This document shows positions 25,338-63,336 of a stretch of 64,000 bases of DNA, in pieces. The DNA is taken from assembly GCA_040702975.1 (NCBI GenBank), contig CP159990.1, forward strand, positions 2,232,001 to 2,296,000. The letters run 5' to 3'. The DNA comes from Roseburia hominis (GTDB taxonomy: Bacteria; Bacillota; Clostridia; Lachnospirales; Lachnospiraceae). The notes below the pieces were generated by a model, which made no database searches, was not told the origin of the DNA, and saw only the letters and a program-made list of their open reading frames with translations. The number at the start of each line of letters is the position of its first letter. Within the stretch, counting starts at the first letter, position 1. The translations under genes and the position numbers were made by a program.

Positions 25338-27530
25338 TTACTCAATTGCTTTCAGGTAAATCTGGAAAGCAGGGTAGTCTCCCTGCATCTGAGGGAGAGG
25401 ATAGCCGGCCTTCATCAATGCCTCGCCGCTGCAAAGAGGCCCGTTCCCATTGATCTGGTATTGGAACGAAGGATTAAGCCCTTTAAGACGTAATGTGCGG
25501 TACGGTGACGCGGCATGGGTACAGCCCAGCACCACATTGACCAAAGCCTCTCTCTGATCAGGAGACACCTGCTCCCAGGCCGTGTAAGAGTTATCCTGGA
25601 AAGGACTGCTGAGTCGGTAGCAGTCTCCATGATGGAGCAGACGATAGTGGGTCTTATACCTTTCCACCTGACACCGAATCTCCATTTTCTCTTCTTCCGT
25701 ACATTTACCCAAATCCATCTCGTAACCAAAAGCCCCGCTCATGGCGGTGATTCCCCGCGTCTCCAGAGGAGTGATTCGTCCATTCTGCTCATTGGGAACC
25801 GCCGAGACATGAGCGCCCATGGTACAAACCGGATAACAGAAGGAGGTGCCGTACTGGATGCGCAGGCGGTCAATCGCGTCTGTATCGTCGCTGCACCAGA
25901 TCTGGGGCGTGTAGTAGAGCATACCACCGTCAAATCTGCCTCCGCCACCGCAGCAGCCTTCAATGAGTATGTGAGGATAATCACGATGTAGTCGCTCCAA
26001 CAGGTCGTATACGCCCAGGACATACCTATGGTAGACCTCTCCCTGGCGACAAGATGGCAGACTAGCGGACCAGACATCGGTGAGACTTCGGTTCATATCC
26101 CATTTGATGTAGGAAATGTCCGCGCTTCCAAGTACCGCCTTTATCTGATCATAGATATAATCCCGTACATCCTTACGGGAGAAATCCAACACCAGTTGGC
26201 CTCTGCCCCGGGAAGGAGAACGGCCCGGAACATGCAGCACCCAGTCCGGGTGAGCACGATAGAGGTTACTGTCCTCATTGACCATCTCCGGTTCCACCCA
26301 AATACCGAATTTCATCCCCAACTCTTTGATACGGGGAACCAAAGCCTCCAGCCCGCCGGGGAGTTTTTCCTGATTTACCTGCCAGTCACCAAGACCGCTG
26401 TTGTCATCATTCCGGGATCCGAACCAGCCGTCGTCCATGACAAACAGTTCAATCCCAAGAGCAGCGGCCTCCCGGGCGATTTCGATCAGTCTGTCGGCAG
26501 TGAAATCAAAGTAAGTAGCCTCCCAGTTGTTCACCAGAATCGGTTTACGTTCACCATAGTAAGGATCGCGAATAAGATGCTTACGGATCACCCTGTGATA
26601 CTGGCGGCTCATTTCGCCAAATCCGTTGGGAGAGCAGACCATAGCCGTTTCCGGAACTGTGAACGTCTCGCCCGGGGCCAGTGTCCAGCAGAAATGATAG
26701 GGGTGTATCCCCATGACCAGGCGGCTGTTCTCATATTGACTGCATTCCACGGCTGCCTCAAAGTTGCCGCTATATAGCAGCATGGCACCGTAGCATATAC
26801 CGGTATCTTCGTCGGCATCATGGTCGCAGAGCATCACAAACGGATTATGCTGATGACTGGAGGTTCCGCGCATACTGCCGACACTTTGTATTCCGGACCG
26901 CAGCGGCCATCTGTCCAGACAACGCTCCATCAAATGGTGGCCGTTAAAGGTGATCATGTCCAGATCAGACCGAAGAAAATCCAGACAAAGGGAGGCACAC
27001 CGGCATAAACGAACCGTCTCCGTCCCCAGGTTGGTGATTCGCACGGCACGGGTGATGAGGTCGAAAGTCTCAAACACGCCATAATAGAGTTCCACCGCTA
27101 CTTGAGCAGCAGAGTCCTTCAGGAAAATCACCAGCGTTTCCGCCTCGTCTTCATCACTATAAAAACCAGGCAGACCATCCGGCATGTATTTACCCTTCTC
27201 CAGGCGGAAACCTTCATAACGCAGATCCGCTGTATGGCTGCCATTTGGAAGCTCCAGTTCAATAGATGGCAAACGGAAATCTCCAACGCCGCAGGTGGAA
27301 TACTCCTGTGGGACAACATCCAGTGAATAGTCCCGGTTACTTCCCGCTTCGTTTGGATTGGGAGAGAAACTGCGGTCACCGCACTGGATCAGCCCTGACA
27401 GATCACAGTCATCAATCCTGGGTCCATAGTAGGTGTGCAGGAGTACATTGTATTGGTCCGCCTTCATCTGGTATGTGGTATTTCGGGTGTGCAGCGTAAA
27501 AATTCTGTTTTCTTGATCAAGTACAATCAT
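25338..27530 (-). CDS. aga: Alpha-galactosidase, GH36
   Basis: 730 residues from the ATG at 27530, which has AAGGAGG 7 bases upstream. GH36 retaining alpha-galactosidase acting on raffinose, stachyose or melibiose. Catalytic nucleophile Asp in YIKWDMNR near residue 478 and acid/base Asp in CSDDTDAIDR near 548; the LFVMDDGWFG segment and the N-terminal beta-sandwich (HTYYGPRIDDCDL) fit. No signal peptide: cytoplasmic, so the ABC transporter would import the intact oligosaccharide. Last gene of the operon, separated from the permease by a hairpin. Confidence 0.95.
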   Translation of the reverse strand: MIVLDQENRIFTLHTRNTTYQMKADQYNVLLHTYYGPRIDDCDLSGLIQCGDRSFSPNPNEAGSNRDYSLDVVPQEYSTCGVGDFRLPSIELELPNGSHTADLRYEGFRLEKGKYMPDGLPGFYSDEDEAETLVIFLKDSAAQVAVELYYGVFETFDLITRAVRITNLGTETVRLCRCASLCLDFLRSDLDMITFNGHHLMERCLDRWPLRSGIQSVGSMRGTSSHQHNPFVMLCDHDADEDTGICYGAMLLYSGNFEAAVECSQYENSRLVMGIHPYHFCWTLAPGETFTVPETAMVCSPNGFGEMSRQYHRVIRKHLIRDPYYGERKPILVNNWEATYFDFTADRLIEIAREAAALGIELFVMDDGWFGSRNDDNSGLGDWQVNQEKLPGGLEALVPRIKELGMKFGIWVEPEMVNEDSNLYRAHPDWVLHVPGRSPSRGRGQLVLDFSRKDVRDYIYDQIKAVLGSADISYIKWDMNRSLTDVWSASLPSCRQGEVYHRYVLGVYDLLERLHRDYPHILIEGCCGGGGRFDGGMLYYTPQIWCSDDTDAIDRLRIQYGTSFCYPVCTMGAHVSAVPNEQNGRITPLETRGITAMSGAFGYEMDLGKCTEEEKMEIRCQVERYKTHYRLLHHGDCYRLSSPFQDNSYTAWEQVSPDQREALVNVVLGCTHAASPYRTLRLKGLNPSFQYQINGNGPLCSGEALMKAGYPLPQMQGDYPAFQIYLKAIE

Positions 27531-27604
27531 ATAGAAACCTCCTTGTAAATCATTGACACAGAAAGAGTGCTGTTGGCAGCCTTCCTGCACATATTATGGT
27601 ATAG

Positions 27605-57634: not shown

Positions 57635-57949
57635 ATGGATGCGCATATAAAAAAAGTGTATGTACCGATGACAGAGACAGGATTTTACATTCTATTGTGC
57701 CTGCGGGAGGAGTCTCATGGTTATGGAATTGTACAAAAAGTAGATGAACTGACAAAAGGAGAGATTCGCATCAGCCCGGGCACGATGTACGGAAGCCTGT
57801 CTAAAATGGAAAAGGATGGCCTGATCCAGTTTGTAAGAGAAGAGGAGAAGAGGAAGATCTACCGTATAACGGTGCTGGGAAATCAGGTATTGGACTTGGA
57901 AATGAAGCGGATTGAGCGTTTGTATCATACTATGGTGGAGGTGCGGTGA
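57635..57949 (+). CDS. PadR family transcriptional regulator
   Basis: 104 residues. Winged helix with MTETGFYILLCLREESHGYGIVQKVDEL and SPGTMYGSLSKMEKDGLIQFV; short C-terminal helix for dimerisation (PadR-s2 type). Start after GAGG. Its stop is 1 base before the next ATG. PadR proteins usually repress their own operon. Confidence 0.95.
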   Translation: MDAHIKKVYVPMTETGFYILLCLREESHGYGIVQKVDELTKGEIRISPGTMYGSLSKMEKDGLIQFVREEEKRKIYRITVLGNQVLDLEMKRIERLYHTMVEVR

Positions 57950-57950
57950 G

Positions 57951-58499
57951 ATGAAAGATACAAAAACAGAATTTAGATTTTTTACGGTTCCCGAATGGAA
58001 GAAGGAGGAGGAGTATCTGCGCCAGCGGCATAAGAGCGGATGGAAATTTGTCAGAGTCACTTTCCCAGGAATGTATCATTTTGAAAAATGTGAACCAGAA
58101 GATGTGATTTATCAATTGGACTATAATCAGGAAGGACTGGCGCATAAGGAAGAATATGTCCAGATGTTCCGGGATTGTGGCTGGGAATATTTGCAGGATT
58201 TTGTAGGTTACAGTTATTTCAAAAAATCTGCCTTGGAGATGAATGGGGAAGAAGAAATTTTTTGTGATGATGCTTCCAGGCTCGATATGATGAAAAGAGT
58301 GATTAAAGGACGTATGCTTCCTTTACTTATCATGTTTTTCCTGGTCATTCTTCCAAATATATATATCCAGAGTCGAATTGATAGCCCGATCAATCATGTT
58401 TTGACATGTGTATTTATTGGGTTGCTTGTAGCATATCTTACATTATTCGGATGGATTGGATACCATTACTGGAAATATCGGAACTCTTTGCTTCATTAG
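57951..58499 (+). CDS. DUF2812 domain membrane protein
   Basis: 182 residues from the ATG at 57951 (GGAGG inside padR). Soluble N-terminal domain with FFTVPEWKKEEEYLRQRHKSGWKF and CEPEDVIYQLDYN, then two membrane helices (~123-140 and 150-172). padR-DUF2812 pairs are common in Firmicutes. The role is unknown; a membrane effector whose level is set by PadR is the simplest reading. Confidence 0.9.
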   Translation: MKDTKTEFRFFTVPEWKKEEEYLRQRHKSGWKFVRVTFPGMYHFEKCEPEDVIYQLDYNQEGLAHKEEYVQMFRDCGWEYLQDFVGYSYFKKSALEMNGEEEIFCDDASRLDMMKRVIKGRMLPLLIMFFLVILPNIYIQSRIDSPINHVLTCVFIGLLVAYLTLFGWIGYHYWKYRNSLLH

Positions 58500-59386: not shown

Positions 59387-59935
59387 ATGGAAGAAAAAAG
59401 GAATTCACTGGTTATGAATTGTAATTTTATGGAGATAAAGCCGATTATGATGGATTTGCCTTATCCTCCGACCCAGGTAAGAGAAAGGAACCAGGCGTAT
59501 GCCAATTTGCTTAGTGTCGATTATTGTGGCTCGGTATCGGAGATGACTGCGATCACGCAGTACATTAATAACGAGAATCGTCTGGCTGGTGAAAAATGCC
59601 AGATTGCGAGGATTCTTTTGGGAATCGCGATGGCGGAGATGATGCATTTACAGAAGTTGGGAGAGCTGATTAATCTGTTGGGAGGAACTATTGATTTTAC
59701 GGCAAAGTACCAGAACGGAATGCAAAAAATGTGGACGCCAGGATATCTGAATATACCGCAGCAACCAGGGAAGATGTTGTTTGCGGATATAGAAGCGGAA
59801 AAAGCGGCGATCAGCCAATACCGAATGCACATGAAAATGATAAATGACTGTGATGTCAACGCTGTACTGGCGAGAATCATTAAGGACGAAGAGTACCACA
59901 TTATGCTGCTGCAGACGCTAATGAAGGAATGTTGA
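59387..59935 (+). CDS. Ferritin-like di-iron protein
   Basis: 182 residues. Four-helix pattern with the metal-binding series Glu in SVSEMTAITQY, ExxH in AMAEMMHLQK, Glu in IEAEKAAISQY and ExxH in KDEEYHIML. An unusual 45-residue N-terminal extension (EIKPIMMDLPYPPTQVRERNQAY) precedes the first helix. Could store iron or reduce peroxide; related clostridial proteins are annotated as ferritin-like or manganese-catalase-like. Its own terminator follows. Confidence 0.85.
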   Translation: MEEKRNSLVMNCNFMEIKPIMMDLPYPPTQVRERNQAYANLLSVDYCGSVSEMTAITQYINNENRLAGEKCQIARILLGIAMAEMMHLQKLGELINLLGGTIDFTAKYQNGMQKMWTPGYLNIPQQPGKMLFADIEAEKAAISQYRMHMKMINDCDVNAVLARIIKDEEYHIMLLQTLMKEC

Positions 59936-60102: not shown

Positions 60103-60126
60103 TGGATAACAGGGAGGAAGAGGACG

Positions 60127-63100
60127 ATGAGAAAAGAAGAGACATTCCGCACGCTTCCGGGATTGAGCCGCGAAGAGGAAGAACAGCAGCTGGCAGATAT
60201 TATTAAAGTGGCCCAGGATAATCTGGACAAAACACAGGGCTATGTCACTGAGTTATCGGACGAGCTGCATGAGTTGATGGAGACATACGGAACAAAAGAC
60301 AAGGAGGCACTGGCATTTTTTCATAATACGCAGTCACAGCTAAGGGAGAATCAGAGGGATTTACTGCGATGTAAAAAGGCGAGGAAGAAACCTTATTTTG
60401 GAAGAATTGATTTTAAGGATCCAAAGCAAAAGGAGGACGAGTCTTATTATGTGGGGCGGGTCGGTATCTCCGAAGGCGGAGTCAGGCCGCTTGTCATAGA
60501 TTGGAGAGCACCGGTGGCATCTATTTATTATGAAAATGCTATGGGCCCTTGCGAGTACGTGGTGAAAAGCGAGGGGACTTATCAGATTGATCTGAAGCGC
60601 AAACGGACTTACGAAATAGCAGAGGACAGGCTGGTCGATTTCTTTGATTCCGACGTGGTGGCAAATGATGAGCTTCTGACAAAATATCTTGCAAAGAGTA
60701 AAAAGGCAGTGTTAGGAGAAATTATTGCCACGATACAGAAAGAGCAGAATGCGATTATCCGCAAATCACCGAAAACGAATCTGATTGTGCAGGGAGTGGC
60801 AGGTTCCGGAAAGACGACTGTAGCAATGCATCGTATTTCCTATATTTTATACAATTATAAAAAAGAATTCCGCCCACAGGATTTTTATATCATCGGCAGT
60901 AATCGGATTTTGCTGAATTATATTACCAGTGTATTGCCGGATCTGGACGTGTACGGTATTTCTCAAATGACGATTGAACAGCTCTTTGTGCGGCTCCTCT
61001 ATGAAGACTGGGATCCGCGGACTTATCGTATTTCTCCGATTGACAGAAAGAATGAGTCGCTCTACATCAAAGGAAGCTATGAATGGTTCCGGGATATGGA
61101 ACGATTTTGCAATGGATACGAAGATATGCGAATCTCACAGAAGGAGATTCGACTGGAGAAAAATGGGGTTCTTCTTGTGAGAGAGACGACGATACGCAAC
61201 TACCTGGACAATAATCAGCAGATGTCTATGCAGAGCAAGATTAACATGCTAAATGAAATCCTGTTGTCAAGGCTGGAAAACGAATTGACAGGAAAATACG
61301 TTTCCTATACTCCAGAGGAGAAAAAGGAGCTCAGGCGTACCTATCGGTGGCATTTCGGAAAAGATGTCTGGAAAGGTTCCATATTTAAGGTCTATCAGGA
61401 GTTCCTTAACAGTCAGGCGTTAAAAGGCAAGGAGGTAGCGTTTACAGAGAATACGTTCGATATATATGATCTGGCTGCGCTTGCCTATTTGTATAAGCGC
61501 ATCAAAGAAACAGACGGAATCCGCGAGGCGAGCCATGTGATCATCGATGAGGCCCAGGACTTTGGTATGATGGCATATGCCGTACTCAAGTATTGTCTTC
61601 GCGGCTGTACCTACACCATCATGGGCGATGTATCACAGAATATTTATTTCGGCTATGGGCTGAACGACTGGAATGAGCTGCAGGAACTGATGCTGACCGG
61701 ATTAGATGACAGTTTCGGTCTGCTAAGGAAAAGCTATCGGAATACGGTGGAGATTTCTGATTTTGCAACAGAGATCCTGCGCCACGGGAGTTTCTCCATT
61801 TATCCGGTGGAGCCGATCAGTCGTCACGGCAATAAGGTGCAGGTAAAGGCGTGTGCCGATGAGAACGCTATGCTGTGTGAGACGGCCGGGACGGTCGAAA
61901 TCTGGCAGAGGGAGGGGCGTGAGACGATCGCGGTCATCTGTCGTGATGAGTCGGAAGCGTCAAGAGTAAGCAACTATCTTGGTGAGAAAATGCCTATCGT
62001 GGACAGTAATCTGGAAACGACTGAGTTTGGAAGCGGAATCATGGTGCTTCCGGTGGAATATACGAAGGGCCTGGAATTTGATGCGGTCCTTATTTACAAT
62101 CCCTCTGCGGAAAATTATCCGGCCACGGATCAGTATGTCAAGCTGCTTTACGTGGCGGCAACGAGGGCGCTGCATGAGCTGACGGTCGTTCATCAGGGAG
62201 ATCTGACGGATCTGATCGGGAAAGTGGTGCCGGAAGAGAAGCGCATGAGGTCGCTGGAAAAAGAGGGGAAACCGGAGGTAAAACGCCACAAAAAACAGGA
62301 AATCTCTGCAAAAGAGCAGGCGGTCATGGACGCTCTGCAGGGAGAGAAGGAACGGGCGGCGCGGAACTATTTGGGGCCGAAGCCGATTGTAGTACAGCAG
62401 GAGAAAGGACAAGATAACAGAGAAAAAAGGAGTTCGGCAAATCAGAATGATGGTATAAACAGTGTGTTGGCAGGAATGTCCGAAAAGAGGCAGCACGACC
62501 CAGGACAAAGAACTTCGATTCGTCAGTTGGAAAGAGAAAAATCTGTTCAGGGAAAGTATGGTAAGATTCTGCCCCAAAAGCCGCCAGAGGAAACAGAGAA
62601 TCTCCTGAATCCATCGCCCTACCAGTTCAGAGACGTACCGGAGGGCAGTGCACTGACTCCAAAAGGGCATAGCCGCATTGATAACGCTGTCCGTATCGTA
62701 AAAAAGACGAAGAGATATATTGATTTGATCAGCCGCTACGGAACACTGCGGCTGACGCCTTTGGAGGACACCATCATTCGGGTGCAGTTTTTAAAGGGCT
62801 CTCTGGCGGAATTTGAACCGGGCTACTGGAATTATCAACCCTCAAAGCAGGTCACATGGACGGCAAGAGAAGGAAAAAGCCTGGTGGAAATTTCGACGGC
62901 AAAGCTGGCAGTCCGGATCGAGAAGAAGACAGGCGCGCTAAAGTTCTATAATGGGGAGAAGAAGCTGCTGCTTGCCGAGAAGGCTGCTCTTCCGCGGCAG
63001 GTGGAGACGACTCCGTATGATCAGAACTGGGTGTATTTTGACTGGGAGAAGAAGGAGAAACTCTCGGCAAAGGGAATTCTGGCAGACGAATTGGAACGTA

Positions 63101-63336
63101 TGGAGCACAAGGCAAGATATATCAGCTTCGGAGGGAAAAGGCTGCGCATGCCATTTCTTGTATCTGTGTATGGTTACGGAATCGGCATCGCCGCGAGAAA
63201 GACGGTGATGTGCTGTAATATTCCGATGTATGGAACTTACATTTACACAGATGGCGAACCGCAGATCGACTACTATTTCCTCTATGGAGGGGACTATAAG
63301 GCGACACTGGAGTTATATAAAAGATTGACTTCTTAA
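60127..63336 (+). CDS. HelD-like UvrD-superfamily helicase fused to a GH31 N-terminal-type domain
   Basis: 1069 residues in one uninterrupted frame, after GGGAGGAAGAGG. Residues 1-700 match HelD/HelR, the ATPase that frees stalled RNA polymerase: N-terminal coiled coil, VGRVGISEGGVRPLVIDWRAP, Walker A GVAGSGKTT (near 224), DEAQDFGMM (near 471), GDVSQNIYFGYG, LRKSYRN and LYVAATRAL (near 675). A charged linker (~705-840) follows. Residues ~840-1069 resemble the beta-sandwich that precedes the catalytic barrel in GH31 glycosidases: TLRLTPLEDTIIRVQFL, FYNGEKKLLL, RMPFLVSVYGYGIGIA and IDYYFLYGGDYKATLELYKRLT, where GH31 enzymes continue into the barrel. Here the protein stops; no catalytic Asp is present. 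Confidence 0.85.
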   Translation: MRKEETFRTLPGLSREEEEQQLADIIKVAQDNLDKTQGYVTELSDELHELMETYGTKDKEALAFFHNTQSQLRENQRDLLRCKKARKKPYFGRIDFKDPKQKEDESYYVGRVGISEGGVRPLVIDWRAPVASIYYENAMGPCEYVVKSEGTYQIDLKRKRTYEIAEDRLVDFFDSDVVANDELLTKYLAKSKKAVLGEIIATIQKEQNAIIRKSPKTNLIVQGVAGSGKTTVAMHRISYILYNYKKEFRPQDFYIIGSNRILLNYITSVLPDLDVYGISQMTIEQLFVRLLYEDWDPRTYRISPIDRKNESLYIKGSYEWFRDMERFCNGYEDMRISQKEIRLEKNGVLLVRETTIRNYLDNNQQMSMQSKINMLNEILLSRLENELTGKYVSYTPEEKKELRRTYRWHFGKDVWKGSIFKVYQEFLNSQALKGKEVAFTENTFDIYDLAALAYLYKRIKETDGIREASHVIIDEAQDFGMMAYAVLKYCLRGCTYTIMGDVSQNIYFGYGLNDWNELQELMLTGLDDSFGLLRKSYRNTVEISDFATEILRHGSFSIYPVEPISRHGNKVQVKACADENAMLCETAGTVEIWQREGRETIAVICRDESEASRVSNYLGEKMPIVDSNLETTEFGSGIMVLPVEYTKGLEFDAVLIYNPSAENYPATDQYVKLLYVAATRALHELTVVHQGDLTDLIGKVVPEEKRMRSLEKEGKPEVKRHKKQEISAKEQAVMDALQGEKERAARNYLGPKPIVVQQEKGQDNREKRSSANQNDGINSVLAGMSEKRQHDPGQRTSIRQLEREKSVQGKYGKILPQKPPEETENLLNPSPYQFRDVPEGSALTPKGHSRIDNAVRIVKKTKRYIDLISRYGTLRLTPLEDTIIRVQFLKGSLAEFEPGYWNYQPSKQVTWTAREGKSLVEISTAKLAVRIEKKTGALKFYNGEKKLLLAEKAALPRQVETTPYDQNWVYFDWEKKEKLSAKGILADELERMEHKARYISFGGKRLRMPFLVSVYGYGIGIAARKTVMCCNIPMYGTYIYTDGEPQIDYYFLYGGDYKATLELYKRLTS

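What the first reader, a model, noticed from the sequence alone, without database searches (positions are those of the whole stretch)
60127..63336. HelD-type helicase fused to a GH31 N-terminal beta-sandwich without the catalytic barrel
Seen: one open frame joins a full set of helicase motifs to a ~230-residue C-terminal part that I recognise as the region preceding the barrel in GH31 glycosidases, ending just where the barrel should begin. Known: HelD removes stalled RNA polymerase; GH31 N-domains contribute to substrate binding. Inference: either a carbohydrate- or nucleotide-sugar-binding domain now tunes a transcription-recycling motor, or a chromosomal event fused helD to a truncated glycosidase gene and the tail is a passenger. 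I know of no described system of this type.
Basis: partly seen in the sequence, partly recalled or inferred. Interest (0 to 1): 0.8.

Follow-up and report, generated by a model that had tools for sequence, protein, structure and literature searches.

The report
HelD motor with captured glycosidase domain
A bacterial motor related to HelD, which pulls stuck RNA polymerase off DNA, carries in a group of gut bacteria a folded domain that stems from a sugar-cutting enzyme; the domain lacks the cutting part, is basic where the enzymes are acidic, and is kept by selection, so it probably has a new binding job.

Summary
The ORF at 60127-63336 encodes a class I HelD-type motor (residues 1-698), a variable linker of about 130 residues and a 240-residue C-terminal domain. 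That domain is the N-terminal beta-sandwich (DUF4968/Gal_mutarotas_2) of GH31 glycosidases, ending where the barrel would begin. It is neither an assembly join nor a passenger. The fusion occurs in 24 of 299 sampled family genomes and was not found outside the family in samples of 344 (order) and 341 (class) genomes. The helicase tree puts every tailed row in one clade, with no confirmed loss. Tail dN/dS has a median of 0.13 (41 pairs, none above 1). Tails form one clade among BoGH31A-type enzymes, so one capture is likely. Tails have median pI 9.2 against 5.2 in GH31 N-domains, eight conserved basic positions that are seldom basic in the nearest enzymes, and have lost several columns constant in those enzymes. 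This speaks against a sugar sensor. It fits a tethered binding module for RNA polymerase or nucleic acid, comparable in role (not fold) to PcrA's C-terminal RNAP-binding domain. That function is inferred, not shown. A 2020 Methods line counts DUF4968 HelD-like hits, but I found no description of the fusion.

The parts
60127..63336 (+). whole fusion gene, 1069 aa
   Evidence: helicase domains in all 120 listed proteins found with the tail region, the window's own included (of 325 found); one fusion ORF above 900 aa in 98 of 105 loci checked
60111..60121 (+). probable ribosome-binding site (AGGGAGG...) ahead of the ATG
   Evidence: read; inference
60127..60720 (+). secondary-channel arm with acidic tip D45, E46, E49 (60259-60273) and conserved Trp W126 (60502-60504); end approximate
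   Evidence: alignment to 6wvk_H; residue roles from passages of PMC7749165 and PMC7749167
60793..60819 (+). Walker A, residues 223-231, K229 aligned to K239 of B. subtilis HelD
60973..61524 (+). clamp-arm region splitting domain 1A (boundaries approximate)
   Evidence: mapped from the 6wvk_H alignment and the domain limits in PMC7749167
61546..61560 (+). Walker B DEAQD, residues 474-478
61729..62220 (+). domain 2A (head), the C-terminal end of ordinary HelD (start approximate)
   Evidence: 19 fetched tail-less orthologs match up to about this point
62221..62613 (+). variable Pro/Lys/Gly/Ser-rich linker, residues 699-829
   Evidence: conservation profile; composition; dN/dS 0.21
62614..63333 (+). 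tail, residues 830-1069: GH31 N-terminal beta-sandwich (DUF4968/PF13802) without barrel
63055..63153 (+). segment residues 977-1009, where the GH31 YGLGQ...Q.N stretch is largely replaced (second Gly kept) and K982, R997, R1007 are conserved basic positions
63214..63216 (+). C1030, Cys in 93 of 94 tails, in a column that is a gap in the 19 nearest GH31 enzymes

Best explanation
It is a class I HelD-type RNA-polymerase recycling motor whose lineage, in Lachnospiraceae, once captured the N-terminal beta-sandwich of a BoGH31A-like GH31 enzyme at its C-terminus. Shown here: the homology, one clade of carriers, purifying selection, a basic charge where the related enzymes are acidic, the loss of columns constant in those enzymes, and the lack of a barrel. 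Inferred: the motor works as in B. subtilis HelD (arm into the secondary channel, clamp arm forcing open the main channel, ATP). The basic domain, hanging on a flexible linker from the head at the downstream side of RNA polymerase, then acts as a second hand. It binds RNA polymerase or the released or downstream nucleic acid, thereby recruiting HelD to stalled complexes or holding the nucleic acid away. This is the same logic as the PcrA/UvrD C-terminal domain behind a disordered stretch, with an unrelated fold.
For: Motor hallmarks aligned to solved HelD. Confidently predicted GH31 N-domain. One helicase clade of 52 rows holds all 50 tailed rows used (SH-aLRT 99, quick tree); the other two rows in it are a frame-split copy and a contig-end copy. 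Helicase and tail distances correlate, Spearman 0.90 over 91 loci, 0 of 300 permutations as high. Median dN/dS helicase 0.09, tail 0.13, linker 0.21. Tail pI above 8 in 92 of 94 distinct tails against 1 of 33 control ORFs cut at residues 21-260 and 1 of 20 nearest GH31. 14 columns are K/R in at least 80% of tails, of which 8 are K/R in at most 26% of the 19 nearest enzymes. Head at the C-terminal end, positive clamp-arm patch proposed to meet downstream DNA, delta absent in Clostridia (PMC7749167 passages). Own genome (97% complete) has no HARE-HTH hit while the B. subtilis control rings. PcrA precedent: PMC5397179 passages.
Against: No binding partner is shown. A basic charge can also serve protein contacts, solubility or localisation. 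L038 (pI 6.9) and L036 (7.7) are exceptions, and L039 has diverged to 23% identity with the usual loop rewritten. The score is under NCBIfam's HelD cut-off, so recycling activity is not certain. 6 of the 14 conserved basic columns are already basic in 37-95% of the nearest enzymes (K860, R875, R885, K890, K933, R957). The whole gene is patchy: 24 of 299 family genomes, and a congener lacks it, so it is dispensable.
Confidence: 0.58

Rival explanations
1. The tail is a carbohydrate or nucleotide-sugar sensor that tunes the motor to nutrient state.
For: It is a true GH31 N-domain, and by their record titles many carriers are gut bacteria.
Against: Columns constant in the 19 nearest GH31 enzymes are lost: G182 kept in 1 of 94 tails, Q202 in 0 of 92, N204 in 2 of 94, D232 in 0 of 94. 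Tails are basic. No neighbour family at a fixed offset exceeds 11 of 98 loci. In XacXyl31 the PA14 domain is the only accessory domain at the active-site interface (PMC8245568 passages).
Confidence: 0.12
2. The tail is a protein-contact or localisation module for a partner other than RNA polymerase or nucleic acid, so the motor is brought to a different job.
For: Some columns lost from GH31 carry new frequent residues (F1001 in 70 of 92, I1032 in 74 of 94; C1030 in 93 of 94), as a new interface might. The genome also keeps a second, tail-less HelD.
Against: No partner gene was seen to travel with it (6 genes to either side, limited by contig ends).
Confidence: 0.22
3. A passenger or decaying glycosidase remnant.
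For: The catalytic barrel is absent; the tail drifts faster than the helicase (median distance 0.56 against 0.37).
Against: dN/dS 0.13, none of 41 pairs above 1. One clade without confirmed loss. Fold confidence 93.7.
Confidence: 0.03
4. An assembly join or mis-called frame.
For: None found.
Against: One-contig genome; 98 of 105 loci with one fusion ORF above 900 aa.
Confidence: 0.01

Closest known systems
Class I HelD (B. subtilis HelD, PDB 6wvk/6zca)
   Same: secondary-channel arm with acidic tip, split 1A, clamp arm, continuous 2A head, Walker motifs, caged Trp (domain scheme from PMC7749167 passages)
   Different: 1069 aa against 774; a linker of about 130 residues and a GH31-derived domain after the head; NCBIfam score under the equivalog cut-off
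GH31 enzymes of the BoGH31A alpha-xylosidase type (5jou, 7kmp, 2xvg)
   Same: N-terminal DUF4968 beta-sandwich, homologous over nearly its whole length; one nearest relative, L175, has BoGH31A as its best PDB match, E 4.9e-145
   Different: no barrel and nothing beyond it; basic instead of acidic; enzyme columns G182, G189, R194, Q202, N204, D232 lost
PcrA/UvrD C-terminal RNAP interaction domain
   Same: all-beta domain after a poorly conserved, predicted disordered stretch at the C-terminus of an SF1 helicase (PMC5397179 passages); analogy only
   Different: Tudor fold of about 50 residues, not this fold; RNAP binding shown there and not here
HelD-like 'DUF4968 domain-containing' proteins in Newing et al. 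2020
   Same: most likely the same architecture (my inference), named in the Methods as 74 + 37 CDART hits (PMC7749167)
   Different: no discussion of the domain, its origin, distribution or role in the passages that I saw; supplements were not open to me

Membership tests
HelD (class I RNA polymerase recycling motor) | SF1 1A and 2A domains with Walker A/B | tested here: met
   K229 = K239, DEAQD; PF13245, PF00580, PF13538 over cut-off
HelD (class I RNA polymerase recycling motor) | N-terminal secondary-channel arm with acidic tip and conserved Trp | tested here: met
   D45/E46/E49 and W126 aligned to 6wvk_H; by sequence only
HelD (class I RNA polymerase recycling motor) | NCBIfam NF041464 equivalog cut-off | tested here: not met
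   370.6 bits against 419; hence called HelD-type, not filed as an equivalog
HelD (class I RNA polymerase recycling motor) | ATP-dependent removal and recycling of stalled RNAP | not testable with these tools
   needs biochemistry
GH31 N-terminal domain (DUF4968 / Gal_mutarotas_2) | sequence homology over the domain up to the barrel | tested here: met
   the single-sequence Pfam score is under the cut-off (24.6 against 27), 28 of 41 alignment members match at E up to 1
GH31 N-terminal domain (DUF4968 / Gal_mutarotas_2) | beta-sandwich fold | tested here: inconclusive
GH31 glycosidase | catalytic barrel with nucleophile Asp | tested here: not met
   the ORF stops at the barrel start
PcrA/UvrD RNAP interaction domain | Tudor-like fold that binds RNAP | tested here: not met
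   the tail is homologous to GH31, 240 residues; comparison is by role only

The most novel reading that the evidence does not exclude
A sugar-enzyme accessory domain was turned, by charge reversal and loss of its GH31-specific loop residues, into a nucleic-acid or RNA-polymerase binding hand of a transcription-recycling motor. In Lachnospiraceae, where the delta subunit is missing, it would take over the second prong that delta supplies in B. subtilis by catching or keeping away the nucleic acid that HelD ejects.
Probability: 0.35. Interest if true: 0.75.

Novelty: new variant of a known kind. Interest (0 to 1): 0.55.

Why it matters
It is a single-origin case of domain capture in which a glycosidase accessory domain appears to have changed trade and was then kept wherever the sampled carriers of its clade could be read whole. 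It gives HelD a third arm that the class scheme I saw in print does not mention, in gut bacteria whose RNAP appears to lack delta. Because tail-less orthologs survive as sisters, its role can be tested by simple domain deletion and swap. It also shows why annotation misses it: the window's own tail falls under Pfam's cut-off, none of the 120 listed proteins bears PF13802, and some are named after the DUF or as an exonuclease rather than HelD.

Tried and rejected
Passenger, assembly join and sugar sensor: weighed above. Sugar operon: across 98 loci (6 genes to either side, ORFs of 80 aa or more) the commonest neighbour cluster occurs in 28 loci but scatters over many offsets, and the best fixed position is 11 of 98. 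Phage origin: a viral-contig scan found no relative (six peptide patterns from one sequence, so weak). Defence system: PADLOC hits are only helicase matches of the UvrD kind, best 47 bits. Detached tails: a search at tail length gave 52 proteins; 13 of the 52 also match the HelD end or linker, the other 39 do not show what lay upstream, and several sit on long contigs, so a few real stand-alone tails are not excluded. A regex for the GH31 nucleophile caught only 8 of 33 ORFs and was replaced by a positional cut for the charge control (34 loci, one dropped as too short; 4 of the 33 ORFs are the own genome's PF01055 hits, three of them weak). In the 20 nearest GH31 the charge of L178 was taken over nearly the whole protein. 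In the first GH31 motif count (20 and 13 of 26 GH31, 3 and 0 of 94 tails) the N.D motif proved absent from the nearest subfamily too (found in 1 of 20), so I dropped it and used the nearest enzymes' own conserved columns (outlying L182 left out, 19 of 20 used). Of 28 tail-less orthologs that I count, 19 were fetched for the tree; the other 9, at 39-45% identity, were not. The trees are quick ones and no test of alternative topologies was run. Promoter scan: 6 sites against 5.4 expected; no terminator, 2.5 expected. Two counts in my notebook are slips: entry 1 says 19 full fusions (20 plus the own gene), entry 3 says 5 of 344 (it is 6).
Full report
WHAT IS THERE. The frame at 60127-63336 is open for 1069 codons in a one-contig genome of 4,257,935 bases. 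Residues 1-698 are a HelD-type motor: best PDB match B. subtilis HelD 6wvk_H, E 4.3e-73, ahead of 6yxu_H HelD at 8.9e-31, with the Walker A lysine, caged Trp and acidic arm tip in register. NCBIfam gives HelD_BACSU 370.6 bits, under its 419 cut-off. Residues 699-829 are a variable, Pro/Lys/Gly/Ser-rich linker. Residues 830-1069 are the GH31 N-terminal beta-sandwich. The evidence for the last point: PF13802 24.6 bits for the single sequence, under the cut-off of 27; a 41-member profile that finds the alpha-xylosidases 7kmp, 5jou and 2xvg in the PDB, in two blocks in the two aligned in full; hhalign Prob 97.7 to 26 GH31 proteins; in L040 the tail match ends at residue 268 and the Pfam barrel starts at 271; AlphaFold2 pLDDT 93.7. 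PMC8245568 (passages) describes the same kind of layout for XacXyl31: DUF4968 in two pieces around PA14, then the barrel. I did not check whether 7kmp is that protein.

HOW WIDESPREAD. A search with the tail region found 325 proteins. The 120 listed (the window's own among them) all carry helicase domains; the other 119 have 57-79% tail identity. In 299 genomes of the family, the window's own included, 42 have a tail-like match. By frame length and, 24 of these are the fusion: 21 as one ORF, one frame-split (L030), two cut by contig ends (L033, L035). The other 18 have weaker matches (best E from 2e-13 to 3e-4), 16 of them in frames of 764-860 aa, as GH31 enzymes would have. A congener of the window's genome, G232, lacks the fusion. 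In an order-wide sample 6 of 344 genomes hold the fusion at E up to 1e-90, all in the same family; 10 genomes of another family have HelD matches that stop at query residue 697-723. In a class-wide sample no genome but the window's own holds it; the other 10 matching genomes of 341 match in frames of 412-845 aa. Named carriers include Blautia, Roseburia, Mediterraneibacter, Hungatella, Kineothrix and Catenibacillus records (best 80 of 543 confirmed matches, some with the tail cut by contig ends). That the window's family is Lachnospiraceae is inferred: G046, in the same family, has the length and match place of the Hungatella hathewayi record. Loci of the two collections overlap in part; 91 distinct HelD ORFs above 900 aa were counted.

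HOW IT AROSE. A helicase-only tree of 50 tailed rows (thinned from 93), 19 tail-less orthologs, the two incomplete copies and 2 paralogs puts all tailed rows in one clade of 52 (SH-aLRT 99; quick method). Tail-less orthologs stand outside, the nearest as sisters, so one gain and no loss suffice. In none of the 19 tail-less loci did a neighbouring ORF match the tail. A tree of N-domains puts 31 tails in one clade (support 100) nested among BoGH31A-like enzymes, in a group with L175-L177, 791-803-residue proteins of another family of the same class (support 97). The exact sister is unsure (support 46 and below, long stem). The tail profile hits the two nearest of those at E 1e-53 or better.

SELECTION. 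Nei-Gojobori estimates (own script) on 41 pairs with dS under 1.5 (of 58 tested) give median dN/dS of 0.09 for the helicase, 0.13 for the tail and 0.21 for the linker; the highest tail value is 0.48. Many pairs share branches, so they are not 41 independent tests. Helicase and tail distances agree (Spearman 0.90, 91 loci).

WHAT CHANGED. Tails are basic: pI above 8 in 92 of 94 distinct tails, and in all 115 proteins above 950 aa of the 120. The controls are acidic: 1 of 33 GH31-type ORFs above 8, median 5.2, and 1 of 20 nearest GH31. Among 32 columns conserved in the 19 nearest enzymes, many stay (E951, E977, G983, Y998, P1009, S1013, Y1017, G1036, D1048), while others are almost wholly lost (enzyme G182, G189, R194, Q202, N204, D232; kept in 0 to 3 of 92-94 tails). 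New near-constant residues appear (S1000, A996, W968, C1030), and eight conserved basic positions are basic in at most 26% of those enzymes (R856, K862, R914, K934, K975, K982, R997, R1007). That the lost columns face the old active site is inference from their place in conserved GH31 loops.

MECHANISM. The motor part most likely acts as HelD. In B. [quoted passage not shown] a positive patch on the clamp arm was proposed to meet downstream DNA; delta, which helps HelD there, is absent in many HelD-bearing organisms such as Clostridia (PMC7749167 passages). The window's genome has no delta-type HARE-HTH domain. A basic domain on a tether of about 130 residues from the head could therefore reach RNAP or nucleic acid. 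PcrA shows a comparable layout with a Tudor domain that binds RNAP (PMC5397179 passages). I commit to a binding module for RNAP or nucleic acid at 0.58; the partner is not shown.

PRINT. DUF4968 occurs in 2 papers of the library: PMC7749167, whose Methods count 74 + 37 HelD-like DUF4968 hits, and the xyloglucan paper PMC8245568. The listings showed no description of the fusion; several are swamped by the English word 'held'. In PMC8655204 (abstract and passages only) the HelD lengths that I saw reach 872 aa, and the word C-terminal does not occur. Subscription papers, preprints and supplements were not searched, so absence from print is not claimed beyond this.

Noticed in passing
P0081 and P0085: Two relatives carry an additional N-terminal acyltransferase-like part (PF18082 NAT_N; PF18164 GNAT_C) ahead of HelD and tail, about 1300 aa.
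   Followed up: no
L144:3254-6298 (-): A tail-less HelD paralog frame joined at its N-terminus to ketopantoate-reductase domains (ApbA, ApbA_C), 1014 aa in one frame.
   Followed up: partly
P0157 and P0172: Proteins in which HelD pieces join the linker or tail directly at short shared stretches (YFG, YGYG), much of the motor missing; P0157 stands for 1482 member sequences. Deletion or assembly chimera, unexplained.
   Followed up: no
L030:5782-8890 (+): In one carrier genome the fusion is split in the linker into two overlapping frames (749 and 323 aa); the tail frame still matches over 219 aligned residues.
   Followed up: partly
window 25338-27590 (-): A GH31-like ORF (750 aa; PF01055 29.6 bits, partial) lies 32.5 kb upstream of the fusion; its N-terminal part is acidic and it did not match the tail profile.
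   Followed up: partly
G000:C1:2462960-2464897 (L042): A second, tail-less HelD (674 aa, about 30% identical) in the same genome.
   Followed up: partly
window 57635-58499 (+): PadR-type regulator gene overlapping a DUF2812 gene, perhaps a regulatory pair.
   Followed up: no
window 59387-59935 (+): Ferritin-like protein with partial similarity to manganese catalase just upstream of the fusion.
   Followed up: no
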